Positions 1,905-64,000 of a stretch of 64,000 nucleotides of DNA are shown here, in pieces (the stretch's first letter is position 1; each line of letters opens with the position of its first letter). Source of the DNA: Bacteroidetes bacterium RIFCSPLOWO2_12_FULL_37_12. GTDB lineage: Bacteria; Bacteroidota; Bacteroidia; 2-12-FULL-37-12. A program made the position numbers and the translations under genes. Under the pieces are notes generated by a model. It made no database searches. It saw only the letters and a list, made by a program, of their open reading frames with translations, and had not been told where the DNA came from. The stretch spans positions 59,311 to 123,310 of the forward strand of contig MEPC01000001.1 of NCBI GenBank assembly GCA_001769655.1. Direction: 5' to 3'.

Positions 1905-3233
1905 ATGATTAGAAGCTTTCGGAACTATTATCATTTAAAAGTTCTCATACTACTTTCCGTAGCTACATTTGTTTTTTCCTGCCGGAAAGAGAAATCGTTG
2001 CAACTCTCCGACTTGCAGAAAATAAACCCTGCCGCTGTTTCCTCCAACTATTTCACTTTTTCCGGCGCCGGGGAAACCCTTTTTACCGGAAACAAAAATA
2101 GTTTTCTCTTCGTTACCAAAACCTCATTAACCGCATACGAAATCAAAAAAGACAGCATCCGGCTTGAATTAAAAGAGCTATCCTCCGTCAGTGATTTTAT
2201 GAAAACCAGAGTGACCACCTTGTCAGATAAGAAACTCCTTCAATTATCTAACGCCGTTTTTGTCTCAGCTAACCATAACGGTGACACTATTCTTGCCAAA
2301 ACCGGCATTTCGTTTTATCTTTTGTTTCCGAGAACACCCGGAAACACAAGACACAACTATTACAAGGGTCTTATCCTTCCGGAGGGAAATCTGAACTGGG
2401 AACAATTGCTTCAATTTTCTGAAAGTGCAAATAATTCCCGCAGGTATTCAGGTGACACAAGCAGGATACTCGCAAAGAAAGACCAGTATACATGGTTCTG
2501 GGAAGGTCCTTTTGTTGATAAAGCTGATGAAATGGATAACGAAAAAGCGATAAAAGCCAAAGGAACCCTTCTTACTACACGGCATTTTTACGAACGGGTG
2601 TGTTATTTTAAAAATGATGCACGCTATTGGAAAGATCCGCAATTTCACAAATCCTACCGACTGATGTTTGACTTATGGTACGAACATAGAAATGAAAATT
2701 TATCCATGGAAGAATTAGATGAATTTGTCCTTCAGGAAATGCAAGTGATTTCAGAACCGGTTTCTCAGAAATATTTTTTATTCGCGCATGAACTCTCTCA
2801 AAAATACGGGAACAGCCAATTGGTGTTTCCTGAAAAAAAATTGGAATTTGATGTGCCGGTGACACTTTCAAAAATGTTGAAAAAAGAGAAAATCAATCTG
2901 TTGAATTATGCTTTGGCAGGTCCTTTTGATAAACCCGGATGGTATGCGTGCGGAAAAGAAGTGACAGAGCCCGACCATTTTGCCGAACCCTTGAAAATTT
3001 TATTCACCGATTCCGTTAAATTTTCTCAGATGGGATTTATTAATCCTGATTATCAACTTATTTCGAATCAGATCCTCGAAGGGGTTAATGGAAAATTTTA
3101 TTTTACATACCCTTATGGACAGTTGCTGGATGTGGCAGTGCTCGGATATTCTACGCAAAAGTTTTATTGGGGAAGAGGTTTTAATTTAAGCTCACGGGAA
3201 ATGCAATTTTTGAAGGTGCACGAGCAACCATGA
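1905..3233 (+). CDS. Hypothetical lipoprotein
   Basis: ORF with signal peptide and lipobox-like LLSVATFVFSC|RKEK; no family recognised. Confidence 0.75.
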   Translation: MIRSFRNYYHLKVLILLSVATFVFSCRKEKSLQLSDLQKINPAAVSSNYFTFSGAGETLFTGNKNSFLFVTKTSLTAYEIKKDSIRLELKELSSVSDFMKTRVTTLSDKKLLQLSNAVFVSANHNGDTILAKTGISFYLLFPRTPGNTRHNYYKGLILPEGNLNWEQLLQFSESANNSRRYSGDTSRILAKKDQYTWFWEGPFVDKADEMDNEKAIKAKGTLLTTRHFYERVCYFKNDARYWKDPQFHKSYRLMFDLWYEHRNENLSMEELDEFVLQEMQVISEPVSQKYFLFAHELSQKYGNSQLVFPEKKLEFDVPVTLSKMLKKEKINLLNYALAGPFDKPGWYACGKEVTEPDHFAEPLKILFTDSVKFSQMGFINPDYQLISNQILEGVNGKFYFTYPYGQLLDVAVLGYSTQKFYWGRGFNLSSREMQFLKVHEQP

Positions 3234-3271
3234 AGGAATAGACCTCTTGCGTAAGTCAAAAAAAATAAATA

Positions 3272-3407: not shown

Positions 3408-4847
3408 TTGAATTTTATACAATCATTTATGCGCGGGTTTTTAACTACATTTAAATTTACTTATAATTCATTGCTCTTATCAATGTTGTTTTTATGTTCA
3501 GCATTAATTTCTTTTGGAGAAAACAAGACGATTGATTCCCTTGAGAATGAAATCAGACGTTTAAAAAGCAACCTCTTTAAAAGTAATTATTCCACTGATA
3601 CTGCTTACATTAGCACGTTACTGTTACTCTCTAATGAATATTATATTTCAAAACCGGAAACCGCTTATAACTTATGCAGAGAAGCTGAAAAACTCTCTAA
3701 AAAAATAAACTATACGGAGGGTCTGATTTCTTCCTACGGATTTTTAGCATATTTTGCGCAATTAAAAGGATTGACTCATGAGGCATTGCATTATTATGAA
3801 TTGAGTATTCCAGTGTATCTCTCAGAGCTAAACTACCGTGATTTGGCTACTACTCTTAACAATATTTCCCGTATTTATTTGGACCAGGGTGATACTACAA
3901 TTTCTCTTGATTATTACACGAAAGGTTTATTTTACAGCCGGAAAGCATCCGACAGTTCCGGAATCGGTTTGACCTTGAATAATATCGGATTTGTATGGTT
4001 TTTAAAAAAAGACCTTGTGAAAGCCCATGCTTATTTTGATTCCAGTTTATCTGTCAGAAAAGCCATTCATGACCTTCGCGGAGTGGCTGAAGTTTTTGTC
4101 AACCTTGGAGCTATTTTCCGTACTGTAAATAACCCGGATTCTTCCCTGTATTATTTTTCAATGGCTCTAAAAATACAAAGATTAATTCAGGACAAAAGAG
4201 GTTTATGTTATTCTTGGAACAATATAGGACATGCTTATTTCTTAAAAAACGATGTTAATCTGGCAATTAAATATGCAGATAGCAGTTTAGCACAATCTAC
4301 CCGTTCGGGCTTAATCGAAAACAGCAAACACGCTTATGAATTGCTCTATCTAATCTATTATAAAAAGAAAAATATTACAAACGCTTTCGAATATTATAAA
4401 TTATATATTCAAGCAAGGGACAGCATAAACAATGACCTGACTCAAAAATCATCCATTCGACTGCAAACAAAATATGAATATGAAAAAACCCGGATACTGA
4501 AAGAGCAGGAAGAGAGGGAGAGAAAGCGGCAGGAGGAAGTGGCAGTTGACAGGAGAAATAAATTGCAATATTCCATCATTCTGATAGTGGTAGTGGCATT
4601 AATGTCGGCACTGCTTTTAATCGGTAAAATCAGGATTAACTCAAAACTTTCCGGTGGACTAATCTTTTTAACCTTTCTGATTCTATTTGAATTTCTTCTT
4701 GTATTGGCTGACCCTTATATTGAAAGTGTCACCGGTGGAGCGCCGGGATTAAAATTACTATGCAATGCCATTATTGCGGCTGGTATATTTCCAATACATG
4801 CCTTCATTGAAGAATGGATGAGGAAGAGATTGATGAATAAAAATTAA
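3408..4847 (+). CDS. TPR-repeat protein with C-terminal coiled coil and 4-TM membrane module
   Basis: Multiple TPR motifs (ATTLNNISRIYLDQGDTTISLDYYTKGL etc.). The C-terminal module RRNKLQYSIILIVVV...FEFLLVLADPYIESVTGGAPGLKLLCNAIIAAGIFPIHAFIEEWMRKRL is shared with the 33959 ORF. Confidence 0.8.
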   Translation: MNFIQSFMRGFLTTFKFTYNSLLLSMLFLCSALISFGENKTIDSLENEIRRLKSNLFKSNYSTDTAYISTLLLLSNEYYISKPETAYNLCREAEKLSKKINYTEGLISSYGFLAYFAQLKGLTHEALHYYELSIPVYLSELNYRDLATTLNNISRIYLDQGDTTISLDYYTKGLFYSRKASDSSGIGLTLNNIGFVWFLKKDLVKAHAYFDSSLSVRKAIHDLRGVAEVFVNLGAIFRTVNNPDSSLYYFSMALKIQRLIQDKRGLCYSWNNIGHAYFLKNDVNLAIKYADSSLAQSTRSGLIENSKHAYELLYLIYYKKKNITNAFEYYKLYIQARDSINNDLTQKSSIRLQTKYEYEKTRILKEQEERERKRQEEVAVDRRNKLQYSIILIVVVALMSALLLIGKIRINSKLSGGLIFLTFLILFEFLLVLADPYIESVTGGAPGLKLLCNAIIAAGIFPIHAFIEEWMRKRLMNKN

Positions 4848-4897: not shown

Positions 4898-5605
4898 ATG
4901 CCCACCCACCACCTCATTTCCCGGAAAATTCAATCCATTTATCAAAAAAATTATCTCGAACATGGTGATACCCCTCAAGGCACTTTCCAAAACGATAGTG
5001 TCACTCAACAGTTGAGGTTTGAACGGTTACTTAAAAATTTTCAGCCGTCATTTTCTCGCTTTCCTCAGAAAACTAATACCCCTGTTCGCTTCCTCGACGT
5101 GGGTTGTGGCACTGCCGGCTTGCATGAATATTTGAATCAACTGAATATTTCTCATTCTTTTACCGGATTGGAAATTGTAAAAGAAATGGCAAACACGGCT
5201 AAAAGTAAATTTCCATCCATAAACATTATTAATTCCGATATAATGGAATTTAAGTCAAAACACAATTATGATATTGTTTTGCAAAGTGGGATGTTCAACA
5301 AACCTTCTGTAAATATTAAAAAGGAATGGAGAAATTATTGCCGGCAAATTGTCAAAAAGATGTATTCATTGTCCAAGATGGGTATTGCATTTAATTCCCT
5401 CACTACGTATAATACATTTTCCGATAAATCACTTTTTTATTTTGAACCGGAAGAGTGGTTCTCTTTCTGCCAGAAAAATCTTTCCCGTTATGTGTTCTTA
5501 GATCATGCCTATCCGCTTTATGAAACGGCAGTTACGGTTCTCAAACCGGAATTTATTGCCACTCTTTTCCCTGAGAACGAGCTTAAAAAATATCACAAAA
5601 ACTGA
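4898..5605 (+). CDS. Class I SAM-dependent methyltransferase
   Basis: Motif [21 protein letters not shown] 235 aa. Confidence 0.8.
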
Positions 5606-5721: not shown

Positions 5722-7569
5722 ATGACCACCACAGAAGTTCTGAAAGAAGTCGTCATTCGTTTCGCCGGTGATTCAGGCGATGGAATGCAATTAACTGGAA
5801 ATCAGTTTACTAATACCTCCGCACTCATGGGAAATGACCTGGGCACCTTCCCCGATTTTCCTGCAGAAATCCGTGCCCCGCAAGGCACGTTAGCCGGCGT
5901 TTCCGGCTTCCAATTGCATTTTGGTTCTGTTGAGATTTTTACTCCGGGCGATATTTGCGATGTGCTCGTATCTATGAATGCCGCCGCCCTTAAAGTAAAC
6001 CTCCGCCATCTCAAAAAAGGGGGAACGATTATCGTAAATACCGATGGGTTTGATGCCAAAAATCTGAAACTTGCCCAAATTCCTGAAAATCAGAATCCTC
6101 TGGAAGATGGTTCTCTTTCCGATTTCAGGTTGTACAAAATAAACGTAACCAAAATCACCCGCGAATGTCTCGCTGACTCAGGGTTAAGCACACGCGACAT
6201 TGACCGTTCTAAAAATATGTTTGTTCTCGGTTTCCTTTATTGGATGTATAACCGCCCAATGGAAAACACCATTGACTATATTCAAAAAAAATTTAGTTCT
6301 AAAGATAAAGCGCTTGCTGACGCAAATATTAAAGCCCTTAAATCCGGCTGGAATTATGGAGAAACTACGGAGACATTTACCACAAGATATGAAGTTCACG
6401 CGGCAAACATAGAGCCCGGCATTTATAGAAACATAATGGGAAATGAAGCCACAGCGATTGGTTTGATAACCGCCGCAAAAAAAGCAGGGCTCAGATTATT
6501 TCTTGGCTCTTACCCTATTACTCCTGCATCGGATATCCTGCACGAACTTTCAAAACATAAAAATTTTGATGTAATTACCTATCAGGCAGAAGATGAAATT
6601 GCCGCCATTTGCTCAGCCATCGGTGCATCCTTCGCAGGAAATTTGGGTGTCACTACTTCCTCAGGACCAGGAGTGGCACTGAAAAGTGAAGCAATTGGTC
6701 TGGGGGTAATGCTTGAAATACCATTAGTAATTTGTAATGTGCAACGCGGTGGTCCTTCAACCGGTCTTCCTACCAAAACAGAACAAGCAGATTTACTGCA
6801 GGCAGTTTACGGAAGAAACGGTGAATGTCCAGTAGCTGTAATTGCCGCAAATTCTCCCTCCGATTGTTTTTCAACAGTTATAGAAGCATGCAGAATATCC
6901 ATAGAGCACATGACACCGGTGATGTTTTTATCGGATGGTTACATAGCCAACGGTGCTGAGCCGTGGAAATTTCCTTCCTCTTCGAAAATACCCGATATAA
7001 AAGTAAAATTTACAACCGAAAAAAATAAGGACGATAAATTTTTACCTTATCTCCGAGATGAAAAATTATCACGTCCATGGACAATTCCAGGCACTCCGGG
7101 ACTTGAACACCGGATTGGCGGTCTTGAAAAACAACATGAAACCGGTAACGTAAATTACGAACCCGAAAATCATGAGTTCATGGTGAAATTGCGCCAGGAA
7201 AAAATTGATAGAATTGCTGACTATGTTCCCTTGCAAAAAATTGAAAGCGGAAAAGAAAAAGGGAAATTGCTTGTATTAGGATGGGGTTCAACATATGGCA
7301 CCATTAAAACAGCCGTAAAAGAATTAATAAATGATGGCATTGAAGTGTCACATGCTCATATTCGTTATCTGAATCCATTCCCCAAAAACCTGGGCGAAAT
7401 ATTATACAATTTTGAGAAAGTATTAATTCCAGAAATCAATAATGGTCAACTCATTAAAATTATTCGCGATAAATTTTTAGTTCCGGCAAAAGGATTTAAT
7501 AAGATACAGGGATTGCCGTTTACCGTTACTGAAATGAAGGAAAAAATTATGGTGGAAATTGGGAAATAG
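5722..7569 (+). CDS. korA: 2-oxoacid:acceptor oxidoreductase subunit alpha (2-oxoglutarate:ferredoxin oxidoreductase, KorA-like)
   Basis: [19 protein letters not shown] and [36 protein letters not shown] are typical of the family. The ORF start 5638 is probably too early; ATG at 5722 (MTTTEVLKE) is preferred. Confidence 0.9.
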
Positions 7570-7740: not shown

Positions 7741-8837
7741 TGGAAATCGCACAACCAATCCTCAGAAAACCTATGGCAACCAACGGCACTCCTGCTATTT
7801 ATCCAAACGGGAGCACTAACGGTTCAGGATATACGTCTAAAGATTTTACTTCCGACCAGGATGTTCGCTGGTGTCCGGGATGTGGAGATTATTCCATCCT
7901 GAAGCAAGTGCAAACCATCATGCCGGAGATTGGGATAAAAAAGGAAAATATCGTTTTTGTGGCTGGCATTGGTTGTTCCTCCCGTTTTCCATATTATATG
8001 GATTGTTATGGAGTACATGGAATTCATGGTCGTGCCACTGCCATTGCTTCCGGAATCAAAGCTACGCGACCTGAATTGAGTGTGTGGGTGGTGACAGGAG
8101 ACGGGGATGGACTTTCCATAGGAGGAAATCATACCATACATTTATTGAGGCGTAATCTGGATATTAATGTGCTGTTGTTTAACAACGAAATTTATGGATT
8201 AACCAAAGGGCAATACTCACCTACATCTCCGGTTGGTAAAATTGCAAAATCAACTCCTTATGGCTCGGTGGATCATCCGTTTAATCCGATAGCGTTGGCA
8301 TTGGGAGCAGAGGGAACTTTTGTGGCACGCTCTTTAGACAGGGATCCAAAACATCTTAAAGAAATTCTGAAACGGGCACATCAGCACAAAGGAACTTCCT
8401 TTACAGAAATTTATCAGAACTGTAATATTTTTAATGACGGTGCATTTTTCACGTACACCGAAAAAGAATCCAAGCCCGAAGAAGCATTATTTGTGGAACA
8501 GGGAAAACCATTGGTGTTTGGTAAAAATCAATCAAAAGGTATAAAACTTGATGGCTTTAAGCCAACCATTGTTGACCTAACTAATGGCGCTAACTCTGTA
8601 AATGATTTGTGGGTTCACGATGAGCATGACACTGTAAAGGCAAATATTCTTGCCCGGTTTTTTGATGATCCGCAGTTGGAAGGGCATTTGCCACGACCCT
8701 TCGGTATTTTCTATTCATACAATAGAAAATGTTACGAAGATTCCCTGATGGAGCAAATTACATCCATAAAATCTCAAAAAGGAGAAGGTGACCTGGACAA
8801 ATTGATAGCTGGAAAACAAACGTGGGAGATAAAGTAG
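7741..8837 (+). CDS. korB: 2-oxoacid:ferredoxin oxidoreductase subunit beta (KorB-like)
   Basis: TPP-binding motif [48 protein letters not shown]; directly downstream of korA. Start probably 7741 ([10 protein letters not shown]) rather than the ORF start 7662. Confidence 0.9.
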
Positions 8838-8841
8838 GTAG

Positions 8842-9876
8842 TTATCGCCCTACAATCGCTCCCGCCAGCTTATAAACCACTCTCGCTCCCACATTCCCAT
8901 CCCAATCATCTTTTCCGGGTGACACTTCGCAAAGGTCAAATCCGATAATCTCCCTGCCACTTTCAGCAAGCTTTTCTACAAGGTAAAATGCCTCCTGAAT
9001 TTCCAAACCACCGGGAACAGGAGTTCCAGTGCCGGGGCAATACACAGGATTCAATCCATCAATATCAAAACTGATATATACCTTTTGCGGAAGGGATGCA
9101 ATGATATCATCGCAGATAAAATCCCATGTTTCTCCTTTGTAAGACCTACTTTTTAATTCAGTGTCACTAAAAAGTTTTATTCTGTTTTTGGAATCATTAA
9201 TCCTGTTTATTTCTTCCTGGCAGATATCTCTGATTCCTACCTGCACTAACTTATGTACGTTAGGTATCTGAATGGCATTGTACATAATGGAAGCATGCGA
9301 AAAAACAAAACCCTCATACCCCTGCCGGAGATCTGCATGAGCATCTATCTGAAGTATTCCGAATGATGTATGTTTTTCAGAAAGCGCCTGAAGAAAACCC
9401 AAAGGCACGCTGTGTTCTCCTCCTATGATTCCAACTTTTTTGTTTTTATTTAACCACGATAGGCATTGCTTCTTTATCTGTTTGTTTAAATCATCACAGG
9501 AAGCATTTATTTCCTTTAACAGGGCTTGAATCACTTTTGAATTCTTTGCATCACCCCCTTTTTCAAGAAAATCAATTACTTTTTTTGATTTTTTGGATAA
9601 TTTATTATTTAATTTAATCCAGGAAACATTTTTTTTCTCTAAAGCAATACCTTTTTTCCAAACAGGACCGAAAGTAATATCATACAAATCCAATTGGGGA
9701 GAGGCGTTGAGAATGGCATCGGGACCATTGGCGGTTCCTCTTTTATAGGAAGTGGTAACTTCCCATGGCACAGGTATCAGAACTAAAGATGCTTCTTCAC
9801 AAGAGAATGGCAAACCGAAGATTCTGTTATTCAGTTGTCCGGGTGCATCGGGGTTGTAGGGGGCTTGCATTAGCAT
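8842..9876 (-). CDS. Ureohydrolase family protein (agmatinase/arginase/formimidoylglutamase)
   Basis: GGEHSVPLGFLQAL, QIDAHADLRQGYEG, SFDIDGLNPVYCPGTGTPVPGGL metal-binding signatures. Confidence 0.85.
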   Translation of the reverse strand: MLMQAPYNPDAPGQLNNRIFGLPFSCEEASLVLIPVPWEVTTSYKRGTANGPDAILNASPQLDLYDITFGPVWKKGIALEKKNVSWIKLNNKLSKKSKKVIDFLEKGGDAKNSKVIQALLKEINASCDDLNKQIKKQCLSWLNKNKKVGIIGGEHSVPLGFLQALSEKHTSFGILQIDAHADLRQGYEGFVFSHASIMYNAIQIPNVHKLVQVGIRDICQEEINRINDSKNRIKLFSDTELKSRSYKGETWDFICDDIIASLPQKVYISFDIDGLNPVYCPGTGTPVPGGLEIQEAFYLVEKLAESGREIIGFDLCEVSPGKDDWDGNVGARVVYKLAGAIVGR

Positions 9877-10881: not shown

Positions 10882-12339
10882 ATGACTTCTTTCTTCATTC
10901 TTTCCTTTGTTGCAATTTATTTTCTAATTCTGTTCGTAATTTCATACATCACCGGAAAGAATGCAGATACTAAATCATTTTTCCTAGCCAACAAACAAGC
11001 CCCCTGGTATTTAGTGGCATTTGGAATGATTGGTGACTCTCTCTCCGGTATTACTTATTTGTCTGTTCCGGGTGCCGTAGGAAAAAGCAACTTTTACTAT
11101 TTACAGGTTGTTTTTGGATATACACTGGGGTATATTGTCATAGCAAAAATACTACTACCCTTGTATTATAGAATGAATCTTACTTCCATTTATAGTTATT
11201 TACTCGAGAGATTTGGCAATGTATCACAGAAAACCGGTTCCTTTTTTTTCCTTCTATCGCGCACATTAGGCGCCGCCTTACGATTATATTTATCAGCCAA
11301 TGTTTTTCAGGTCTTTGTATTCGATAAATTCGGAATTCCTTTTAGTGTCACCCTTTCTGTGATCATCATTTTCATGTTTATTTATACCTATCAGGGTGGA
11401 ATAAAAACTCTGGTCTGGACAGATTCGTTGCAGTCGTTGTTTTTAGTGGCAGGGGTTATACTTTCTATTGCCGCTATCGGAACCAAAATGAATTGGGGCG
11501 TAACAGAAATGATTCATCAGATATCCACAAGCCCCTATACTAATTTATTCAACTGGCACTGGCAGGAAAAACAATTTTTTCTGAAACAGTTTTTTAGCGG
11601 AGCATTCATAGCCATTGTCATGACCGGATTAGACCAGAACATGATGCAAAAAAATCTGAGTTGCAAGTCGTTGGGAGATGCACAAAAAAACCTTTATTGG
11701 TTCAGTGGCATTGTGGTGATAGTAAATATCTTTTTTCTCTCTCTGGGAGTTTTATTGTATTTATACAGCACTGCCAACGGAATGGAAATTCCTTCCAAAA
11801 CCGACCATCTCTTTCCACTTCTGGCATTGAATCACCTTGGACTTTTTGCTTCCATGGTTTTTATTCTGGGATTAACCGCCGCAACATTTAACAGCGCCGA
11901 TTCTGTACTCACCACGCTTACCACTTCTTTTTGTGTGGATTTTTTAAATGTGGAAAATCCCGGCAAATATTCCGAAAAGCAAAAAACAGGGATTCGTCAT
12001 AAAGTCCAGATTTCATTTGGAATTGTTTTACTGTTATTAATACTTGGATTTCAATCGTTTATTGATGATGCTGTTATTAATGCAGTTCTTACCATGGCAG
12101 GATACACGTATGGTCCTCTGTTGGGAATGTTCGCCTTTGGAATATTTACGAATCAAAAACCCATAGATAAATTCGTACCCATGGTTTGTATTTTAGCTCC
12201 TGTGATTTGTTTTTTTATAGCTAACAATTCAAAGCAGTTATTTGGTGGATATGAGTTTGGATTTGAATTGTTGATTCTCAATGGGGCGTTGACGTTTCTG
12301 GGGTTGTGGGCATTGGCGAAAAAGAAAGACCTTAGATGA
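10882..12339 (+). CDS. Sodium:solute symporter family protein
   Basis: ~13 TM segments; LANKQAPWYLVAFGMIGDSLSGITYLSVPGAVG and FNSADSVLTTLTTSF are typical of the SSS family. Start probably 10882 (MTSFFILS). Confidence 0.85.
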   Translation: MTSFFILSFVAIYFLILFVISYITGKNADTKSFFLANKQAPWYLVAFGMIGDSLSGITYLSVPGAVGKSNFYYLQVVFGYTLGYIVIAKILLPLYYRMNLTSIYSYLLERFGNVSQKTGSFFFLLSRTLGAALRLYLSANVFQVFVFDKFGIPFSVTLSVIIIFMFIYTYQGGIKTLVWTDSLQSLFLVAGVILSIAAIGTKMNWGVTEMIHQISTSPYTNLFNWHWQEKQFFLKQFFSGAFIAIVMTGLDQNMMQKNLSCKSLGDAQKNLYWFSGIVVIVNIFFLSLGVLLYLYSTANGMEIPSKTDHLFPLLALNHLGLFASMVFILGLTAATFNSADSVLTTLTTSFCVDFLNVENPGKYSEKQKTGIRHKVQISFGIVLLLLILGFQSFIDDAVINAVLTMAGYTYGPLLGMFAFGIFTNQKPIDKFVPMVCILAPVICFFIANNSKQLFGGYEFGFELLILNGALTFLGLWALAKKKDLR

Positions 12340-52245: not shown

Positions 52246-52282
52246 AATTTAATAATTATTACCTTTGCGACCCATCTTTAAT

Positions 52283-52355
52283 GATTCCGTAGCTCAGCTG
52301 GTAGAGCATTTCCCTTTTAAGGAAGAGGTCCTGGGTTCGAATCCCAGCGGGATCA
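52283..52355 (+). tRNA. tRNA-Lys (TTT anticodon)
   Basis: GATTCCGTAGCTCAGCTGGTAGAGCATTTCCCTTTTAAGGAAGAGGTCCTGGGTTCGAATCCCAGCGGGATCA; anticodon loop CTTTTAA. Confidence 0.94.
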
Positions 52356-52479
52356 CACTTCGATTTCATCATTTTAAATTTGTAATACTTTAAAAGTTTT
52401 GACAGGTAGGTTTAAGTACCTGCCGCACATTCTAAACTACATACTTAAACCAGATTTGTCATTGTCCTCTGAAAACATC

Positions 52480-54180
52480 CTATAACTTCAACGTCTTCAG
52501 AATTTTCTTCCCCTTTTTTCCTTCTATGGAAATCATATAAATGCCTTTTGAAAAATCTCCGATTTCAAAACGCAAAAGTTGTTTTTCGCCTGTTAATATC
52601 ACTTGCTTTTCCAATACTAACCTGCCGGAAGAATCCGAAATCCTAACGTTTATTTTTTCTTTTGGCTTTCCCTCTGCAAATATAGTAAGCAGGTTCTGAA
52701 AAGGATTTGGATAAATTCTGATTTGAAAATTGCTTGTAAATGTATCAATTTTAATATCTACCAATTGCTTTGCTCTTACAAAATCAGGAATCCCGTACCC
52801 CATTAAAGAATCAGGACTAGTATATTGAGAACCGGATTGATGGAGGATTTCGATAATTTCCATCGCAGTAAGATTGGGATATGCTTGCCAGAAACCTGTT
52901 GCCATTCCACAAAGAATCGGACTAGAAAAAGAGGTTCCCCCACCGTAATTAATAGTATCGTTTGACGCCCAATAGGTGACACCGGCTCCTGGCGCTGTAA
53001 TATCCGGTTTTACCCTTCTGTCATACGAAGGTCCAACAGAACTAAAACTTGCATAGTCGCCCGATAAACTTACGGCTCCCACAGTAAGCACAGAATCCCC
53101 ATCGGCTGGAGCGCTGATATATTTCCAGGGTTTGTTCCCGTAATTCCCTGCACTACTCACCACAAGAATTCCTTTGCCAGCCGCCATATCTGCCGCCTTG
53201 GTTACCAGGGCTGTATTTCCGTCCATGTTTGTGTATGTATAACTTTGAGTTGAATCATCAAACGTAGAATATCCCAGAGATGAATTAATTACATCCGCTC
53301 CGGCGCTGTCTGCAAATTCTGCCGCCATCAACCAGTTGGCTTCTTCAATTGTTTGCTCGGAGGATACATCTTCTGTTCTCAATAATAAATATCCCGCTTT
53401 ATAGGCAGTCCCTATGAGCATACCGGGAACATACCCCGCCATAAGGGAAAGTACCATCATCCCATGGGTATTATCTTCATAAACACCGGCATTGTGTGCC
53501 ACAAAATCGTAAGTGCCTTTGATTTGATTATTCTGATAAAGATGTCTAAATGCTTTTAAGGTATCGGCTCTGTAAAAACCTGCATCCAATACCGCTATTA
53601 ACATTCCTTCTCCATGATACCCTGCCTCATGCATGGCGACAGCGCCAATCATGTTTGCCTGAGTATATGACGAACCGTAGAGGGTGGAATCCACATACGT
53701 AGAGACGGGTTTTAAACCCGTCTTTGCCGTCTGTACCACATTCATTGAGACGGGTTTAAAACCCGTCTGTACGGTATTTGTCATTTGTATTCCATTATTC
53801 CGGATTTTTTTATTTAATGATTTTGCAGATTTAACAAAAGGTAATTTTTTTATTAATTCCAGGGTTGCAGAATCTGTTTCTACCAAAGATGCATTAAACC
53901 AGCGTGAATTATACCAGACCTCTGCGCCAAGTTTTCTCATCGAATCGGGGTAGTTTGGTGTCACCGGTAAATCAGTTTGATTAATTAATATATTTTGTTT
54001 GTTTCTTCGTTGAATAGAACGGGGAGAAAGAAATTGTTGTGGGTTAGAAATGGAATAAGGAGAATTATTTTTGTCTGTAAAATAGATAAGATGTTTTTTC
54101 TTTACCGGTGTTGTTTGGGAAAGAACCGGCGATAAGATGTGGGAAACCAGAAAAATTATTATTAAAAATGTTTTATTCAT
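52480..54180 (-). CDS. S8 (subtilisin-like) serine peptidase with T9SS C-terminal sorting domain
   Basis: MLIAVLDAGF (D), NTHGMMVLSLMAG (H), GGGTSFSSPILCGMATGF (S); C-terminal IRIYPNPFQNLLTIFAEG...KGIYMISIEGKKGKKILKTLKL. Confidence 0.9.
   Translation of the reverse strand: MNKTFLIIIFLVSHILSPVLSQTTPVKKKHLIYFTDKNNSPYSISNPQQFLSPRSIQRRNKQNILINQTDLPVTPNYPDSMRKLGAEVWYNSRWFNASLVETDSATLELIKKLPFVKSAKSLNKKIRNNGIQMTNTVQTGFKPVSMNVVQTAKTGLKPVSTYVDSTLYGSSYTQANMIGAVAMHEAGYHGEGMLIAVLDAGFYRADTLKAFRHLYQNNQIKGTYDFVAHNAGVYEDNTHGMMVLSLMAGYVPGMLIGTAYKAGYLLLRTEDVSSEQTIEEANWLMAAEFADSAGADVINSSLGYSTFDDSTQSYTYTNMDGNTALVTKAADMAAGKGILVVSSAGNYGNKPWKYISAPADGDSVLTVGAVSLSGDYASFSSVGPSYDRRVKPDITAPGAGVTYWASNDTINYGGGTSFSSPILCGMATGFWQAYPNLTAMEIIEILHQSGSQYTSPDSLMGYGIPDFVRAKQLVDIKIDTFTSNFQIRIYPNPFQNLLTIFAEGKPKEKINVRISDSSGRLVLEKQVILTGEKQLLRFEIGDFSKGIYMISIEGKKGKKILKTLKL
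53703..53768. repeat. Pair of 21-bp palindromes (53703-53723 and 53748-53768) inside the S8 peptidase CDS
   Basis: AGACGGGTTTTAAACCCGTCT and AGACGGGTTTAAAACCCGTCT, reverse complements of each other, 45 bp apart start to start, encoding TGFKPVS / TGLKPVS. Confidence 0.9.
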
Positions 54181-55170: not shown

Positions 55171-56262
55171 CTACCTTTCAATAATCCCCCCGCAGACTAC
55201 ATCATCTCCTTCATAAAAAACCGCAGATTGTCCGGGAGCAATGGCAAAAACCGGCTCTTCAAAGTTAGCAAGTAACGTATCATTTTCTTGTGTCACTACT
55301 GCATAGTGTCCTTCGTCATTGTAACGTATGGTGGTCATCAACCTTGCATTTTGATCAGGCAAAAAAGGATATTTAATAAAATTAAGTTTCCCGACTTTCA
55401 TACTACGTTGTGATAACTTGTCCAAAGGGCTTAACACTACCTTGTTTTCAGATGATTTGATTTCAGAAACGTACACAGGATATCCCAGCGCCACCCCTAA
55501 TCCTTTCCGTTGACCGATGGTATAAAATGGATACCCTTCATGGGTACCCACCACTTCTCCTGATTCCAGAATAAATTCTCCATTCTTTAGTTTTTCCGCT
55601 ACTCCATTTACTTTTCTTTTCAAAAAACCCCGATAATCATTATCCGGAATAAAACATATTTCGTAGGATTCCGGTTTATTTGCCAATTCTTCAAAACCCA
55701 ATTTTTTTGCTTTAAGTTTTATGTCAATTTTTTTATGACTTCCCAAAGGAAAAATGCTCCGCGCTAAACTGCTTTGAGAAAGTCCCCAAAGTGCATACGA
55801 TTGGTCTTTGTTTTTATCTTCGCCGGTTGATACAATAAAACGGTCATTTTCTTTTCTGACCCTTGCATAATGTCCTGTTGCAATGAAATCACATCCAAGT
55901 TGGTCGGCTCTTTTCAAAAGCGCAGTCCATTTTATGTGTGTATTGCACAACACGCAGGGATTGGGTGTCCGGCCTGCCATGTATTCCTCTACGAAATTAT
56001 CAATTACGAAAGTTCCGAATTCATCCCGGATGTCAATAATATAATGCGGAAAATCTAATGCCACTGCCACTGCTCTGGCATCGTTGATAGAGTCCAAACT
56101 ACAGCAACCGGTTTCTTTGCGGTTTCCTCCACTGGCGGCATAATCCCACGTTTTCATAGTGATGCCTACAATATCATACCCTTGCTCTTTAAGCAATACG
56201 GCGGCAACGGAGCTGTCCACCCCCCCACTCATGGCTACCAGGACTTTATTATTTGATGACAT
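55171..56262 (-). CDS. mnmA: tRNA-specific 2-thiouridylase
   Basis: VLVAMSGGVDSSVAAVLLKEQGYDIVGITMK; GRTPNPCVLCNTHIKW; ATGHYAR; FYTIGQRKGLGVALG. Confidence 0.95.
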   Translation of the reverse strand: MSSNNKVLVAMSGGVDSSVAAVLLKEQGYDIVGITMKTWDYAASGGNRKETGCCSLDSINDARAVAVALDFPHYIIDIRDEFGTFVIDNFVEEYMAGRTPNPCVLCNTHIKWTALLKRADQLGCDFIATGHYARVRKENDRFIVSTGEDKNKDQSYALWGLSQSSLARSIFPLGSHKKIDIKLKAKKLGFEELANKPESYEICFIPDNDYRGFLKRKVNGVAEKLKNGEFILESGEVVGTHEGYPFYTIGQRKGLGVALGYPVYVSEIKSSENKVVLSPLDKLSQRSMKVGKLNFIKYPFLPDQNARLMTTIRYNDEGHYAVVTQENDTLLANFEEPVFAIAPGQSAVFYEGDDVVCGGIIER

Positions 56263-56392: not shown

Positions 56393-57331
56393 TCAGTGAA
56401 TAAATTCCCGCTTTAAATGGCAATACTCCTCCCAGATTTCCTTTAAAATTTCTCCCGCCGGTTTGATTTCATGAATGGCTCCGGAAATCTGACCAATTTC
56501 CAATTCTCCTTCTTCCAAATCCCCCTCAAACATCCCTTTCTTAGCCCGTGCTCTACCGAGCAATTCTTTCAATTGCTCTTCGGTGGCACCGTTTTTTTCT
56601 GCTGTATTCACTTTTTCCCAAAAAGAATTACGGATTATGCGCACCGGAGCCAGTTTTTTCATCACAAGCATGGTTCCCCCTTCACCGGTTTCGAGCACTT
56701 TCTTTTTAAAATTAATATGCGCTGATGATTCCTCGCTTGTCACAAACCGTGAACCGATCTGGACTCCATCCGCGCCTAAAACTTCTGCCGCTAACATACT
56801 TCGCCCGCTTGCAATGCCACCAGCCGCAATTAATGGAAGTGTCACTGCATCCCGCACCATCGGAATCAAACAAAAAGTGGTCGTCTCTTCTCTCCCATTG
56901 TGTCCGCCGGCTTCGAACCCCTCGGCTACCACTGCGTCAACCCCTGCTGATTCTGATTTTTGTGCAAACTTTACACTTGAAACAACATGCGCCACTTTGA
57001 TTCCATTTTTTTTCAACTCCGATGTCCACGTTTTTGGATTTCCTGCTGAAGTAAAAACGACAGGAACTTTTTCTTCTATGATAATCTGTATATGTTTTTC
57101 AATATCCGGATACATGAGAGGAATATTAACGCCAAACGGTTTTGAAGTGGCTTTCTTGCATTTTTGAATGTGAGAACGTAAAATATCAGGATACATGGAG
57201 CCCGAACCAATCAATCCTAATCCACCGGCATTGCTAACTGCACTTGCCAGCTCCCAGCCGGAACACCAAAGCATTCCTGCCTGTATGATGGGATAGTGAA
57301 TGTTGAAGAGAGTTGTAATGCGATTTTTCAT
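56393..57331 (-). CDS. Nitronate monooxygenase / FabK-like flavoprotein
   Basis: YPIIQAGMLWCSGWELASAVSNAGGLGLIGSGSM; VVAEGFEAGGHNGREETTTFCLIPMVRDAVTLPLIAAGGIASGRSMLAAEVLGADGVQIGSRFVTSEES. Confidence 0.88.
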   Translation of the reverse strand: MKNRITTLFNIHYPIIQAGMLWCSGWELASAVSNAGGLGLIGSGSMYPDILRSHIQKCKKATSKPFGVNIPLMYPDIEKHIQIIIEEKVPVVFTSAGNPKTWTSELKKNGIKVAHVVSSVKFAQKSESAGVDAVVAEGFEAGGHNGREETTTFCLIPMVRDAVTLPLIAAGGIASGRSMLAAEVLGADGVQIGSRFVTSEESSAHINFKKKVLETGEGGTMLVMKKLAPVRIIRNSFWEKVNTAEKNGATEEQLKELLGRARAKKGMFEGDLEEGELEIGQISGAIHEIKPAGEILKEIWEEYCHLKREFIH

Positions 57332-57448: not shown

Positions 57449-60400
57449 ATGAAAAAACTATCATTTTTATTATTGCTCGGACTCATTGCTCTTCAAAACT
57501 CAAACGCACAGTTGAATGGTTCTTATACCATTGGAAGTAGCGGTGATTACACCACTTTCGGTAACGCTATCACTGCACTTAAGACACAAGGCGTAAGCGG
57601 ACCTGTAACATTCACCGTTGCGACCGGAATTTACAACGAACAATTTACGTTTGGTAAAATACCGGGACAAGGATTCTCTAACCGTATCACTTTTGAATCA
57701 CAGACAGGAAATCCGGCAGATGTGACCTTGTTTTATTCTTCTACTTCCAGCACCGACAACTATATAATTAAATTTGACAGCGCCACGCATATTACTTTTC
57801 AGAATTTGACATTTACCAATACAGGTACGAGTTATGCCCGGAATATTGATTTCAAAACGGGGACGCCTGCCACCGGAATTCAGTTTCTAAACAATATTTT
57901 TAATTCCGGCGCAAACAATAGTTCCAGCAATAAAGCCACCATTTATACTTCGGGAGCCGCAGTAGATAGCTGTCTATTTCAGGGAAATACTTTTAACGGA
58001 GGTTATGCCGGTATCAGCATGGATGGTCCCGCTTCCCCTCTTTCAAAAGGTGTTCTTATCAGTAACAACATTTTTTATGACCACTATTATTCCATTTATC
58101 TGAAAGAAATGGACGCACCTGTTATTTCTTCCAACACACTAGTAAACCCAACCAGTCGGGGTATTTTTCTTGAATATTGTGATAACCTGACTAAGATTAC
58201 ATCCAACAAAATCAATTCTACATTCAATATAAGTGGAATTTATTTTAATCAATCCGATGGAACGCTGGCTAACCGGGGATTAATTGCAAATAATTTTGTG
58301 CAGGTTGGAGCCACAAGCAATTCTTCCGGAATTCAAATCAATACTTGCACATATCAAAATCTTTATCACAATACTGTTAGTGTAACAGGTACCACAACCG
58401 GAAACAGCGCGGTAATTGTAACTTCAGGATCTGATATTCAGATAAACAATAATATATTTTCCTGTGAAAATAGCGGCTATGCATTAAATACCAATTCGGC
58501 TACTGCCATTACCACTTCTGATTACAATAATTTTTATTCTCCGTCAAATTATATGTTTTACCGCACGAGTACTGAATACAGGGACTTGTCTGAATACAAA
58601 ACCGCTTCCTCAAAGGAAACAAATTCAGTTTCCTTTTATCCGGGATTTAAGTCCTCAACCGACCTCCATGTTTTATCATCATGGTTAAATGGCATGGGAA
58701 CAGTTGTCTCCATCGTTACGGATGACTTCGACGGAGAATTACGGAACAATCCTCCCGATATAGGAGCCGATGAATATACTCCTTATACCAACAGTCCGTT
58801 ATCCGGTTCCTATACGCTGGGTTCCGGCGGTGATTTTCCTACTTTCAAAGCGGCTATTGATACATTGAAGTTACGTGGAATTTCTTCTTCTGTAACGTTT
58901 GATGTACTCAATGGGGATTATTTTGAATCCCTCGAATTAATTGAAATTCCCGGCATAAATTTTCAGGATTCAGTTATTTTTCAATCTCAAAGCGGCAATC
59001 CTGTCAATGTCACTATTGATTTTTCGGCTACCAGCGCATCTGATAATTATCTGATATTATTTAAAGGCGCAGATCGTTTCAGTTTTATGAATATGACACT
59101 TAACGCTTCCGGTTCCAGCGGATATAACACGATTGCAAATTTTTACGGATATGCAAAAAAGAATAAATTTCTTAATTGCATTATGAATGGAGGCAGTAAT
59201 TCGAGCAGTTACAACTACTCCCACCTTTATGCAAATGGTTCTTATCTGGATAGTACAACCATTTCCGGATGTACCATAAACAATGGTTATGGATTTTATT
59301 TATTTGGTCCTTCCAATACAGAGTTGGCAACTGATGTAACCATTGTAAATAACACGTTCTCCGGTTCCTATAATTCCATTTTTCTTGAAAAAATGTCATC
59401 TCCAAAAATAAATGGAAATACGTTTCTGAATTCCACAAACGATGCCATTCACCTTCAATACTGCGATAATGATTTGCAGGTTTTGTCAAATACGATAACT
59501 TCCAACTCCGACAAATCTGGCATTTATCTCTACAATTGTGACGGAATATCTGCTAAAAGAGGATTGATAGCCAATAACTTCATTCAATACGGATCCACCG
59601 GTAATGCTTATGGTATTTATCTGAATACATGTACCTACGAGAATGTTTATCATAATAGTATAAATCTCACAGGCACTTCAACTTCGTCTGCATCTTTTTA
59701 TGGTTATAATGGTTCAAATCTCCAATTGAAAAACAACGTATTTGCAAATACCGGTAGCGGGTATGCACTCAATACAAATTCATCAACAAATATCAGTGCC
59801 ACTGATTATAATAACTTTTTCACCAACGGAAATTACATCGCTAACTGGGGTTCAACGGCATATAATGACCTTGCATCTTTAAAAACTGCCTCCGGAAAAG
59901 ATGTCAATTCTATTTCCGTAAATCCGGGGTTTTTCTCCAACATAAACTTGCATACCAATAGTTATTGGTTAGATGGAAAAGGCACCCCCCTCGCTGTTGT
60001 CACTACCGATTATGATGGATCAGTGAGAGACGGAGTGACACCGGATATTGGTGCGGATGAATTTACTTCCAGCATTATTCCTTTAAATGGTACATACACT
60101 ATTGGAACTACAGGTGATTTTCCAAGTTTTGCCAACGCCATTGATTCACTCAATTTAAAAGGGGTCTCCGGTCCTGTGATTTTTGATGTGTTGAACGGAA
60201 CCTATAACGAACAATTTATTTTAAAACCGGTTTCTAACGCAAGTGCTGTCAATACCATTACTTTTCAGTCACAGTCGGGGATTGCAGGCAACGTGGTAGT
60301 TGATTTCAATGCCACCTCATCCTCAGCTAATTATGTTGCCTGGTTGGCGGGGGTGAGTTTTATTACCCTTCAGAATATGACGTTTACTGCATCCAGCACC

Positions 60401-63400
60401 AACAGCAATGCCGTTGTAATTTATCTAACCGGAAATGCCACCTATAATCAAATTAAAAATTGTTTGATAAACGGAAAATCCTCTTCCTCTGCTATTTGGG
60501 CTTCCTCCTGTCAAAGTGATAATCTGACAATTTCAGGAAACACAATCAATGGCGGATATCATTCCATTAATTTGCAAGGTGTAAGTACTTCTGTTCTTGC
60601 TAAATTCGTTTCAGTGACACTGAATACTATTAACTCTTCGAGCTATAATGGAATTTATCTTCAGAATCAGGATGCACCGGTTATCCTTTCCAATCAAATC
60701 AATAGTTCCGGACAAGACGGCATTCGCCTCGAATATTGTGATAATGCTTTGCAGGTATTGAAAAACAAAATTTATTCACAAAATGATTATTCCGGAATAG
60801 TTTTGCAGAATTGTGATGGAACAACCTCCAGCAGGGGATTGATTTCCAATAACTTTATCACAATTGGAAATAACGGAAATGCCAATGGTGTTTATACGTA
60901 TTATTCAAATTATCAAAATGTGTATCACAATTCCATTAACATAATTACCGGGGGTTCAGGTACCAGTTCTGCCGCTTTTAAAGGATTTTATGGAAGTAAT
61001 ATCAATGTTGTAAATAATATTCTGTTAAATAATGGACCCGGATTTTCCTATTATGTAAACAATTCTTCCGTTGCAGGAACATCCGATTTTAACTGTCATT
61101 CTTCCAAGGGCAACTTCCTTGCCTACTGGTCCGCTAATGTATTAGACCTCGAAGCATTAAAAACAGCAAGTTCTAAAGAGTCCTCTTCCATTAATGTTTC
61201 AGCAGATTTTGTGAGTGTCACTGATTTACATATTTCTTCTTATTGGTTAGATAACAAAGGAACCCCCTTGACTGACGTCTCCGACGATATTGACGGTGAA
61301 GTAAGAAATGCAGGTACACCGGATATTGGAGCCGATGAGTTTACATCCACACGATTGCCACTTGCAGGAACTTATATTGTAGGAACGGGTGGGAATTTTA
61401 CGACCTTGACGGAGGCGGCAGATAGCTTAAATATTTTGGGAGTAAGTGATTCTGTATTTTTCCTGATAAAATCGGGAACTTATTTCGAACAATTCGAACT
61501 TAAACAGATATCAGGAGCCGACAGTGTACATCCCATTCAGTTTCAATCACAAACCGGAAATGCTATAGATGTGGTTATCAGTTTCACAGCTACTTCCGGT
61601 TCCAATAATCATATTATCATGCTAAGCAGTGCGGATAACATTACGTTTAAAAATCTTACATTTTCCCCTTCAGGAATCGGCGGATATGCGAAAGCATTTT
61701 ATATTTATGGGGTGGCAAACAATATTACTTTTGATAATTGCATTTTTAACGGCGCCACCGGTTTTAATAGCGTCAACACCTCTTTAATTCATGTGGATAA
61801 TTCAAATCCTAAGTCCCTTCTCATTACAGGTTGTACTTTCAATAACGGAGGGTATGGTTTGTATTTTACGGGTATTTCCACTTCCAATCCGGCAAAAATC
61901 CTTACGTTATCAAACAATGTTTTTAACTATCAGTACTACCCTGTATCCATTAATTATGGTTCCGGAATTTATCTGAAATCAAATGTTTTAAATGAAATAA
62001 AAAACGATGGATTTTATTTAGGTAATTGTTCAGGAGAAATAAAATTGGAAGGAAATAAAATATATGGAATTTCTGATTATACCGGAATAAATTTTTACAG
62101 CACGAATGGCACTGCACCCTCTCCCGTTCTCATAGCTAACAATTTTGTTTCGTATGGAAGCGCAGGAAGTTCTTACGGAATTTATCTCTATAGTTCTAAT
62201 TTTATCAATGTTTATAACAATACAGTGCATCAAAGAAGCTCAAGTTCATCTTCCATTGCTTTTTATACGTATGGCGGATCTAACATCAATGTACTAAATA
62301 ATATTTTTTGTGCATCCGGAACCGGCTATGCGTATTACTCAAATAATGGAACCAATATTTTAAACAGCGATTATAATAATTTATACTCGAATGGTTCGTA
62401 CCTGGCTTATTGGTCAGTCAATCAGGTAAATTTAAGTTCCCTCCAAAGTGCCTCAGGAAAAGATCTATCCTCTCTTTCTTTATTTCCATCTTTTGTTTCC
62501 ATTTCGGATCTTCACCTCAAGTCACTTGGATTAAACAATAAAGGAACGTATCTGACGGATGTATTGGATGACATAGATGGAGAGTCCAGAGATACACTCA
62601 CTCCCGATATCGGTGCTGATGAATTTAATTCAGGGGCTATTCCTTTAGCGGGCGTTTACACCATTGGTCCTACCGGTTATTTTTCTTCTATTACTCAAGC
62701 CGTTGACAGTTTAACCATGCTCGGTATCTCTGATTCGGTCATTTTTAAAATCCAAACCGGCACCTATAACGAAAAAATAGAATTAAACGCAATTTCTGGT
62801 GTCACTGCTGTAAAATATGTTGTATTTGAGTCACAAACCGGAAATGCTACTGACGTAGTTATTTTTAACGCGGCTACAAGCACTTCTGATAACTTTATTT
62901 TTAATCTGAAAAATGCGAAATATTTTAATTTCCGTAAACTAACTTTCAAAGCAACCGGAATTTCTTATGCTTCAATTTTCACACTTTCCGGTGAAACGAG
63001 AAAAATAAAAATTTCAGAATGTGTAATGGAAGGAAAACCATTCGTTAGTGGTTACGAGCAAGCCCTGATACGTTCTTACCAAACTGTCATTGACTCAATA
63101 ACTGTAATTTCCAATAAAATGACCAATGGAGCGTATGGGGTTTATCTCTATGGAATTAACACAACAAATCCCATAAGTGGAATTAATATTTCAGGAAATG
63201 AATTCAATGGATTTTATTATTCCATTTATTTATCAACTTGCGATGCGCCCGTTGTGGAGAAAAACAAAATGACCTCTTTCCAGGAACGTGCCATTCACAT
63301 CGAGACATGTGCAAATGCAACTTGGGTACATCAAAACTTTATGGTATCGGACAATGCATATTATGGGATTGTACTTTATAATTCCAATGGTACTCCCGGA

Positions 63401-64000
63401 GCTTACGGAATCACTTCCAACAATATGATTTATCTGGGAAGTAATGGTAATACAAGAGGGATTTATTTAGAAAATTCTTCATACCAGAATATTTACCACA
63501 ACTCCGTACATATTACAGGAACCAATACAAGCTCTTCTGCCCTGCTGGTATCTAGTGGTAGTAATATTAATGTGGTTAATAATGTGCTTTCAAATTCCGG
63601 TGCCGGTTATTCTTATTATGTAAATACTACAAGTGCCGTTCAAACTTCTGATTTTAATGACCTTTATGTAAAAGGTGCTAAACTGGGATATTGGAGCACC
63701 GACCAAACCAATTTAGCCGCATTCAAAACTGCCAGCGGAAAAGAAGTATCTTCTGTTTCAGTAGATCCCATGTTTGAATCCAAAACCGATTTGCATGCTT
63801 CGGCTATAGAAATTTATGAGAAAGGAACTCCTCTGACTGCAATCACTTACGATATTGAGGGAGAATTACGGGATGCAGTTAAACCCGATATAGGCGCTGA
63901 TGAAATTTATTGCACCAATCCTCTGATTTCCATGAAAGCAGATACGGTTTGTAACGGTGACACAAGTTTGATTTTAAATTTAAGTACCGGCTTGCGAACC
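57449..64000 (+). CDS. Giant secreted protein of repeated right-handed beta-helix units, partial (3' end beyond window)
   Basis: ATG at 57449, signal peptide MKKLSFLLLLGLIALQNSNAQ. Unit starts at 57515, 58802, 60086, 61364 and 62648 are all in frame with 57449, and each unit ends in PDIGADE. A new, different domain begins after ~63.9 kb. Absent from the ORF track because it has no stop in the window. Confidence 0.85.
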   Translation, partial: MKKLSFLLLLGLIALQNSNAQLNGSYTIGSSGDYTTFGNAITALKTQGVSGPVTFTVATGIYNEQFTFGKIPGQGFSNRITFESQTGNPADVTLFYSSTSSTDNYIIKFDSATHITFQNLTFTNTGTSYARNIDFKTGTPATGIQFLNNIFNSGANNSSSNKATIYTSGAAVDSCLFQGNTFNGGYAGISMDGPASPLSKGVLISNNIFYDHYYSIYLKEMDAPVISSNTLVNPTSRGIFLEYCDNLTKITSNKINSTFNISGIYFNQSDGTLANRGLIANNFVQVGATSNSSGIQINTCTYQNLYHNTVSVTGTTTGNSAVIVTSGSDIQINNNIFSCENSGYALNTNSATAITTSDYNNFYSPSNYMFYRTSTEYRDLSEYKTASSKETNSVSFYPGFKSSTDLHVLSSWLNGMGTVVSIVTDDFDGELRNNPPDIGADEYTPYTNSPLSGSYTLGSGGDFPTFKAAIDTLKLRGISSSVTFDVLNGDYFESLELIEIPGINFQDSVIFQSQSGNPVNVTIDFSATSASDNYLILFKGADRFSFMNMTLNASGSSGYNTIANFYGYAKKNKFLNCIMNGGSNSSSYNYSHLYANGSYLDSTTISGCTINNGYGFYLFGPSNTELATDVTIVNNTFSGSYNSIFLEKMSSPKINGNTFLNSTNDAIHLQYCDNDLQVLSNTITSNSDKSGIYLYNCDGISAKRGLIANNFIQYGSTGNAYGIYLNTCTYENVYHNSINLTGTSTSSASFYGYNGSNLQLKNNVFANTGSGYALNTNSSTNISATDYNNFFTNGNYIANWGSTAYNDLASLKTASGKDVNSISVNPGFFSNINLHTNSYWLDGKGTPLAVVTTDYDGSVRDGVTPDIGADEFTSSIIPLNGTYTIGTTGDFPSFANAIDSLNLKGVSGPVIFDVLNGTYNEQFILKPVSNASAVNTITFQSQSGIAGNVVVDFNATSSSANYVAWLAGVSFITLQNMTFTASSTNSNAVVIYLTGNATYNQIKNCLINGKSSSSAIWASSCQSDNLTISGNTINGGYHSINLQGVSTSVLAKFVSVTLNTINSSSYNGIYLQNQDAPVILSNQINSSGQDGIRLEYCDNALQVLKNKIYSQNDYSGIVLQNCDGTTSSRGLISNNFITIGNNGNANGVYTYYSNYQNVYHNSINIITGGSGTSSAAFKGFYGSNINVVNNILLNNGPGFSYYVNNSSVAGTSDFNCHSSKGNFLAYWSANVLDLEALKTASSKESSSINVSADFVSVTDLHISSYWLDNKGTPLTDVSDDIDGEVRNAGTPDIGADEFTSTRLPLAGTYIVGTGGNFTTLTEAADSLNILGVSDSVFFLIKSGTYFEQFELKQISGADSVHPIQFQSQTGNAIDVVISFTATSGSNNHIIMLSSADNITFKNLTFSPSGIGGYAKAFYIYGVANNITFDNCIFNGATGFNSVNTSLIHVDNSNPKSLLITGCTFNNGGYGLYFTGISTSNPAKILTLSNNVFNYQYYPVSINYGSGIYLKSNVLNEIKNDGFYLGNCSGEIKLEGNKIYGISDYTGINFYSTNGTAPSPVLIANNFVSYGSAGSSYGIYLYSSNFINVYNNTVHQRSSSSSSIAFYTYGGSNINVLNNIFCASGTGYAYYSNNGTNILNSDYNNLYSNGSYLAYWSVNQVNLSSLQSASGKDLSSLSLFPSFVSISDLHLKSLGLNNKGTYLTDVLDDIDGESRDTLTPDIGADEFNSGAIPLAGVYTIGPTGYFSSITQAVDSLTMLGISDSVIFKIQTGTYNEKIELNAISGVTAVKYVVFESQTGNATDVVIFNAATSTSDNFIFNLKNAKYFNFRKLTFKATGISYASIFTLSGETRKIKISECVMEGKPFVSGYEQALIRSYQTVIDSITVISNKMTNGAYGVYLYGINTTNPISGINISGNEFNGFYYSIYLSTCDAPVVEKNKMTSFQERAIHIETCANATWVHQNFMVSDNAYYGIVLYNSNGTPGAYGITSNNMIYLGSNGNTRGIYLENSSYQNIYHNSVHITGTNTSSSALLVSSGSNINVVNNVLSNSGAGYSYYVNTTSAVQTSDFNDLYVKGAKLGYWSTDQTNLAAFKTASGKEVSSVSVDPMFESKTDLHASAIEIYEKGTPLTAITYDIEGELRDAVKPDIGADEIYCTNPLISMKADTVCNGDTSLILNLSTGLRT

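What the first reader, a model, noticed from the sequence alone, without database searches (positions are those of the whole stretch)
2281..63963. Over-represented heptamer GTGACAC/GTGTCAC with biased flanks: candidate uptake-sequence-like or Chi-like motif
By hand scan I find 34 copies. GTGACAC starts at 2281, 2452, 2859, 8919, 16948, 17537, 17954, 23495, 25732, 27257, 29443, 33209, 35295, 35724, 37762, 52976, 60035, 60614, 63957. GTGTCAC starts at 4726, 4998, 6647, 7345, 9161, 11345, 19081, 31935, 33038, 37993, 53958, 55291, 56839, 61215, 62799. At an assumed ~38% GC, roughly 5 would be expected in 64 kb on both strands. When all are oriented as GTGACAC, the preceding base is a purine in 32/34 and the following base is never G (mostly T), giving RGTGACACH. 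The copies fall inside CDSs in several reading frames (GAC-AC = DT, GTC-AC = VT, GTG-ACA and GTG-TCA), so one favoured codon pair does not explain them. Both orientations are similarly frequent (19/15), which fits an uptake-signal-like repeat better than a strand-skewed KOPS/Chi motif. I know of no described function for this word in Bacteroidota, so the function is inference.
Basis: partly seen in the sequence, partly recalled or inferred. Interest (0 to 1): 0.72.

Follow-up and report, generated by a model that had tools for sequence, protein, structure and literature searches.

The report
Genome-wide iterated palindrome GTGNCAC
One bacterial lineage has peppered its whole chromosome with about 3,000 copies of a short mirror-symmetric DNA word, GTGNCAC, about six to ten times more than chance in genes and non-coding DNA alike; this points to an unidentified protein that reads this site on the double helix, as suspected for the HIP1 repeats of cyanobacteria.

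Summary
All 34 GTGACAC/GTGTCAC copies are in the window (one coordinate is off by 1). The genome holds 1,753 copies against 189 of the reversed control word. In a 1.2-Mb sample it exceeds a Markov null 10-fold; the next best 3+N+3 palindrome reaches 1.8-fold. It beats a protein- and codon-preserving shuffle 6.2-fold in genes (all three frames), and a Markov null 6.1-fold between genes. None of several hundred sampled same-phylum genomes shares it. Presumably acquired islands lack it. Palindromy and no non-coding preference argue against a Chi or a classical uptake sequence; the pattern matches the highly iterated palindromes (HIPs) of cyanobacteria. Most likely a homodimeric double-strand DNA reader, perhaps one of the genome's roughly 18 DNA methyltransferases, drives it; the agent is not identified. 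A methylation- or pilus-linked uptake role is not excluded (ComEC, DprA and a type-IV-pilus-like locus are present). Vsr is absent.

The parts
2281..2287 (+). GTGACAC
2452..2458 (+). GTGACAC
2859..2865 (+). GTGACAC
4726..4732 (-). GTGACAC (reads GTGTCAC on +)
4998..5004 (-). GTGACAC
5106..5112 (.). GTGSCAC (C/G-centred copy, not in the finding)
6647..6653 (-). GTGACAC
6673..6679 (.). GTGSCAC
7345..7351 (-). GTGACAC
8032..8038 (.). GTGSCAC
8322..8328 (.). GTGSCAC
8919..8925 (+). GTGACAC
9161..9167 (-). GTGACAC
11345..11351 (-). GTGACAC
16948..16954 (+). GTGACAC
17537..17543 (+). GTGACAC
17954..17960 (+). GTGACAC
19081..19087 (-). GTGACAC
23495..23501 (+). GTGACAC
24262..24268 (.). GTGSCAC
25732..25738 (+). 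GTGACAC
27257..27263 (+). GTGACAC
27412..27418 (.). GTGSCAC
29443..29449 (+). GTGACAC
31935..31941 (-). GTGACAC
33038..33044 (-). GTGACAC
33209..33215 (+). GTGACAC
35295..35301 (+). GTGACAC
35724..35730 (+). GTGACAC
36015..36021 (.). GTGSCAC
36641..36647 (.). GTGSCAC
37762..37768 (+). GTGACAC
37993..37999 (-). GTGACAC
38000..52975 (.). 15-kb stretch without any GTGNCAC (about 11 expected at the genome density); holds a SacI-like type II restriction-modification pair and other accessory-looking genes
   Evidence: gap; gene content
52976..52982 (+). GTGACAC
53496..53502 (.). GTGSCAC
53958..53964 (-). GTGACAC
55290..55296 (-). GTGACAC (finding says 55291)
56583..56589 (.). GTGSCAC
56839..56845 (-). 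GTGACAC
59796..59802 (.). GTGSCAC
60035..60041 (+). GTGACAC
60614..60620 (+). GTGACAC
61215..61221 (-). GTGACAC
62799..62805 (-). GTGACAC
63957..63963 (+). GTGACAC

Best explanation
GTGNCAC is a highly iterated palindrome (HIP-like word). It is a 7-bp odd palindrome with free centre, extended weakly to (C/T)A-GTGNCAC-T(G/A), that this lineage gains and keeps genome-wide because a homodimeric protein reads it on double-stranded DNA. Shown: palindromic symmetry, exact spacing, frame-independent and coding-independent enrichment, heavy use of the word where synonymous change allows it, absence from islands, and uniqueness to this lineage among genomes sampled. Inferred: sites accumulate slowly in resident DNA through selection on, or biased repair or recombination around, the (modified) site.
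For: In the 1.2157-Mb sample GTG-N1-CAC occurs 919 times; every other spacing from 0 to 15 gives 51-164. It is 10.3x a Markov-2 expectation, against 1.8x for the next 3+N+3 palindrome. In CDSs 847 are observed against 137 +/- 12 in codon/protein-preserving shuffles, with frames 6.4x, 6.2x and 4.7x; intergenic 71 against 11.6. 31% of all peptide-compatible places outside two islands carry it, against 4% for the mirror word CACNGTG; islands 3-10%. The flank preference also holds in non-coding DNA alone. One-off forms are raised mainly at the outer pair (ATGNCAC/GTGNCAT about 2.4x in frame 1) and ATGNCAC keeps the A flank; inner one-offs are mostly near or below expectation. That is the pattern Elhai reports for HIP1 (PMC4390886). 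Density of 760/Mb lies in the 500-2500/Mb of HIPs. The genome is unique among two overlapping draws of about 395 genomes each from its class and phylum. It is very rich in methyltransferases.
Against: No reader protein is identified. Nearly all type II methyltransferases found sit beside a restriction gene, so no clear orphan methyltransferase was found, and restriction sites are usually avoided rather than enriched. No methylome is available. To my knowledge the HIP class has been described only in cyanobacteria, and with mainly even-length, GC-rich words.
Confidence: 0.55

Rival explanations
1. DNA uptake signal: a pilus-linked or methylation-dependent competence system prefers GTGNCAC-bearing DNA, and recombination of such DNA spreads the word (molecular drive).
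For: ComEC and DprA are present. A pilus-like locus on contig C34 holds secretin, PilO-like protein, GspE/PilB-type ATPase, GspF/PilC-type protein and a pilin with a sub-threshold match to ComP_DUS (E 1e-5, 26.7 bits against cut-off 27.3). The word is absent from islands and spread on both strands in genes.
Against: Known uptake sequences are not palindromes and favour non-coding DNA (PMC1939737); this word is palindromic and has no non-coding excess. The pilin's best matches in other libraries are generic pilins (PilA, GspG). ComEC and DprA also ring in most of the 14 control genomes, Bacteroides included, so they are not specific evidence. Only one PF00437 ATPase was found, so no PilT partner.
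Confidence: 0.2
2. Mutational or repair bias: a sequence-specific mismatch repair or conversion process turns near-misses into GTGNCAC without any benefit.
For: Synonymous near-misses are depleted (GTANCAC frame 0 0.51x; GTGNTAC frame 1 0.51x), as conversion would give, although the shuffle is zero-sum and selection predicts the same.
Against: The pressure acts on both half-sites and on the flanks at once; a Vsr-type single-base process does not, and no Vsr homologue is found. Outer near-misses are enriched, not depleted.
Confidence: 0.15
3. Chi-like recombination word read by RecBCD/AddAB.
For: Genome-wide, short, lineage-specific, over-represented.
Against: Chi is directional on one strand; this word is self-complementary.
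Confidence: 0.04
4. Codon-pair, dipeptide or base-composition artefact.
For: The word lies mostly in genes, and GC correlates with density (r 0.67).
Against: Codon/protein-preserving shuffles give a sixth of the count in all frames; non-coding DNA shows the same enrichment; control words and other spacings are flat.
Confidence: 0.01

Closest known systems
HIP1 (GCGATCGC) and alternate HIPs of cyanobacteria (PMC4390886)
   Same: Palindrome, 500-2500 per Mb, a single dominant word, lineage-specific, one-off forms raised at the outer positions, inner ones disfavoured.
   Different: Bacteroidota instead of Cyanobacteria; odd length with free centre; 36.6% GC genome; no cognate methyltransferase assigned.
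DNA uptake sequences (Haemophilus USS, Neisseria DUS; PMC1939737)
   Same: Short word at high density, both strands, inside genes.
   Different: Those are non-palindromic and favour non-coding DNA; no uptake shown here.
Campylobacter RAATTY methylation in natural transformation (from my own knowledge; not read in detail)
   Same: A palindromic site linked to transformation through methylation.
   Different: No methylation or transformation data for this organism.
Chi sites
   Same: Over-represented short genomic word.
   Different: Chi is directional; GTGNCAC is self-complementary.

Membership tests
Highly iterated palindrome (HIP) | Palindromic word | tested here: met
   GTG-N1-CAC 919 against 51-164 at other spacings; flanks extend the symmetry
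Highly iterated palindrome (HIP) | Outlier over-representation at about 500-2500 per Mb | tested here: met
   2,993 in 3.94 Mb; 10.3x, next palindrome 1.8x
Highly iterated palindrome (HIP) | One-off forms concentrate at first and last positions, inner ones disfavoured | tested here: met
   published pattern
Highly iterated palindrome (HIP) | Methyltransferase specific for the word or its core in the same genome | tested here: inconclusive
   About 18 methyltransferase loci, specificity for this word unassigned; most have a restriction partner
Highly iterated palindrome (HIP) | Found in cyanobacteria | tested here: not met
   Nearest named relatives of a window protein are Bacteroidales/Bacteroidetes MAGs. 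A descriptive rather than mechanistic criterion, so I say 'HIP-like', not 'a cyanobacterial HIP'
DNA uptake sequence (USS/DUS) | Non-palindromic word with non-coding excess | tested here: not met
   Palindrome; 6.2x coding, 6.1x non-coding; criterion
DNA uptake sequence (USS/DUS) | Competence machinery with a sequence-specific receptor | tested here: inconclusive
   ComEC, DprA, pilus locus present; pilin match to ComP_DUS below cut-off
DNA uptake sequence (USS/DUS) | Preferential uptake of DNA bearing the word | not testable with these tools
   needs a transformation assay
Chi | Directional (strand-asymmetric) word | tested here: not met
   Self-complementary; 915/838 by strand for the A-centred form
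Vsr-type repair footprint | Vsr endonuclease encoded | tested here: not met
   no PF03852 match

The most novel reading that the evidence does not exclude
GTGNCAC is the site of an undescribed chromosome-wide recognition system of this Bacteroidota lineage: either a palindromic, methylation-marked self-recognition signal for DNA uptake or recombination, or the site of a new nucleoid-organising dimer.
Probability: 0.25. Interest if true: 0.85.

Novelty: new variant of a known kind. Interest (0 to 1): 0.62.

Why it matters
Why some genomes keep thousands of copies of one palindrome has been open since HIP1, described in cyanobacteria. An independent, very strong case in another phylum, with an odd-length word, a free centre and an unrelated sequence, gives a second data point. 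It makes the competing ideas (methyltransferase-guided repair, uptake drive, nucleoid protein) testable in a different background. Enrichment that is equal in all frames and in non-coding DNA shows pressure on the DNA itself.

Tried and rejected
Codon/dipeptide artefact: rejected by shuffles. Restriction to this window: rejected. Single-orientation or Chi reading: rejected by palindromy. Vsr repair footprint: no Vsr. Phylum-wide or class-wide Bacteroidota word: rejected. General tendency of Bacteroidia toward such palindromes: pieces of up to 20 kb from 40 other genomes were taken and those of 6 kb or more show none of comparable strength. Looking for the word in the literature gave nothing relevant. 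A clear orphan methyltransferase as reader: none found among PF01555, PF00145, PF02086 and PF02384 hits. Sister species: none held; the nearest genomes share only the class, so conservation of individual sites could not be tested.

Full report
Observation. Against composition, Markov-2, Markov-3 and Markov-5 nulls the window expectation is 4.6, 2.3, 3.4 and 13.8; the word ranks first of 7,515 heptamer pairs at orders 2 and 3. The assembly (3.94 Mb, 43 contigs, 98% complete) has 915+838 copies; the same word read backwards has 83+106.

What the word really is. C- and G-centred forms are enriched as well: 526 A/T-centred and 393 C/G-centred copies. GTG and CAC are tied at spacer 1 only: 919 copies, against 51-164 at spacers 0 and 2-15. 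Among all 64 palindromes of form 3+N+3 it is 10.3x expectation and the next is 1.8x. Flanks extend the symmetry: A (then G) before, T (then C) after, C/T and G/A one further out. The same preference holds in 71 purely intergenic sites (counted in both orientations), so it is not a coding effect. Counting the free centre, the window holds 45 sites and the genome 2,993, against 429 for the mirror word CACNGTG.

Not codon usage. Shuffling synonymous codons within each gene (protein and codon usage kept) leaves 137 +/- 12 sites where 847 are observed; the three frames give 6.4x, 6.2x and 4.7x. Non-coding DNA gives 71 against 11.6 expected (6.1x). Where the peptide permits the word, 31% of places outside two named islands have it; the mirror word fills 4%. 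In frame 0, among contexts differing only in the valine third base, GTG is used 353 times against 105 for the other three codons together (null 57 against 179).

Near-misses. With codon control, the outer transition ATGNCAC/GTGNCAT is clearly raised (about 2.4x in frame 1; GTGNCAG 2.5x in that frame on small numbers), and ATGNCAC keeps the A flank seen at true sites. Changes at inner positions are mostly near or below expectation and lose the flank. Elhai describes a like pattern for HIP1: deviation is greatest at the first and last positions and disfavoured at the centre (PMC4390886).

Distribution. Sites lie on average about one per 1.3 kb but are missing from islands: window 38000-52975, with a SacI-like restriction gene and a D12 methyltransferase, and a surface-polysaccharide region on contig C16 with one site in 56 kb. 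That these islands are recent arrivals is inferred from gene content and, for C16, lower GC; if so, the word builds up slowly in resident DNA. Sites are somewhat rarer near gene ends (start sites were called mechanically).

Phylogenetic spread. No genome nearer than the same class is held. In 395 genomes of the class, and in 396 drawn from the phylum (part of them also in the class draw), none approaches this count; the next best ratio to the mirror word among larger counts is 551/170. Pieces of other genomes of the class show no palindrome of like strength. The nearest named relatives of a window protein (LptD, 35-40% identity) are Bacteroidales/Bacteroidetes MAGs, whose contig pieces show no enrichment.

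What could read it. A self-complementary word with strict spacing and free centre is what a symmetric dimer on double-stranded DNA would select (inference). The genome is very rich in DNA methyltransferases: PF01555, PF00145, PF02086 and PF02384 hits at about 18 loci. Many are paired with recognisable restriction enzymes: HindIII, EcoO109I-like, BanI, MvaI/BcnI, SacI-like, HNH and MmeI-like types. Two have no recognised restriction partner: C42:303410 (neighbour of 323 aa, no match in Pfam, PADLOC or NCBIfam) and a methyltransferase-SNase fusion at C4:68326 (neighbour of 1001 aa with no match in PADLOC, the only library it was run against). They are the first candidates to test, but nothing ties either to GTGNCAC.

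Uptake and Chi. Chi needs direction; this word has none. Uptake sequences are stated to be non-palindromic and to favour non-coding DNA (PMC1939737); neither holds here. Yet ComEC, DprA and a pilus/secretin locus exist. The pilin has a sub-threshold ComP_DUS match, but its best matches elsewhere are generic pilins. I keep uptake as the main rival at 0.2. A Vsr-type repair footprint lacks its enzyme.

Verdict. What it works like: HIP. Membership rests on three met sequence features and an unresolved methyltransferase link. The mechanism (dimeric reader, most likely a methyltransferase) is inferred at 0.55.

Noticed in passing
genome sample (1.2157 Mb): Extreme avoidance of AGNCT (0.06x, all four centres), GGCC (0.07x), CTAG (0.11x), GTCGAC (0.01x), GCWGC (0.16x), CATATG (0.08x) and GTATAC (0.15x); probably footprints of restriction systems. 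The AGNCT specificity is unfamiliar to me.
   Followed up: partly
window 41679-43707: SacI-like restriction endonuclease next to a D12-class adenine methyltransferase, in a 15-kb GTGNCAC-free stretch; GAGCTC is 0.27x in the genome.
   Followed up: partly
whole genome: Unusually many restriction-modification systems: about 18 methyltransferase loci with HindIII, BanI, EcoO109I-like, MvaI/BcnI, YhdJ-like, type IIG and type ISP members.
   Followed up: partly
L147:7259-17997 (contig C34): Pilus/type II secretion-like locus (secretin, PilO-like, ATPase, GspF-like, pilin with weak ComP_DUS match) in a Bacteroidota genome.
   Followed up: partly
L011 (contig C7, 7,986 bases): No GTGNCAC, and AGNCT at 2.63 per kb where the rest of the genome nearly lacks it: likely a contaminant or a very recent arrival.
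   Followed up: no
genome sample: A second over-represented word, CCCTATACC (part of TACCCCTATACCC), and C-rich words CTCACCCC / CCCCTCTC, probably dispersed repeats.
   Followed up: no
L107, L109, L112, L124, L125: TACNGTA is moderately over-represented (about 4-7x) in several unrelated same-class genomes.
   Followed up: no
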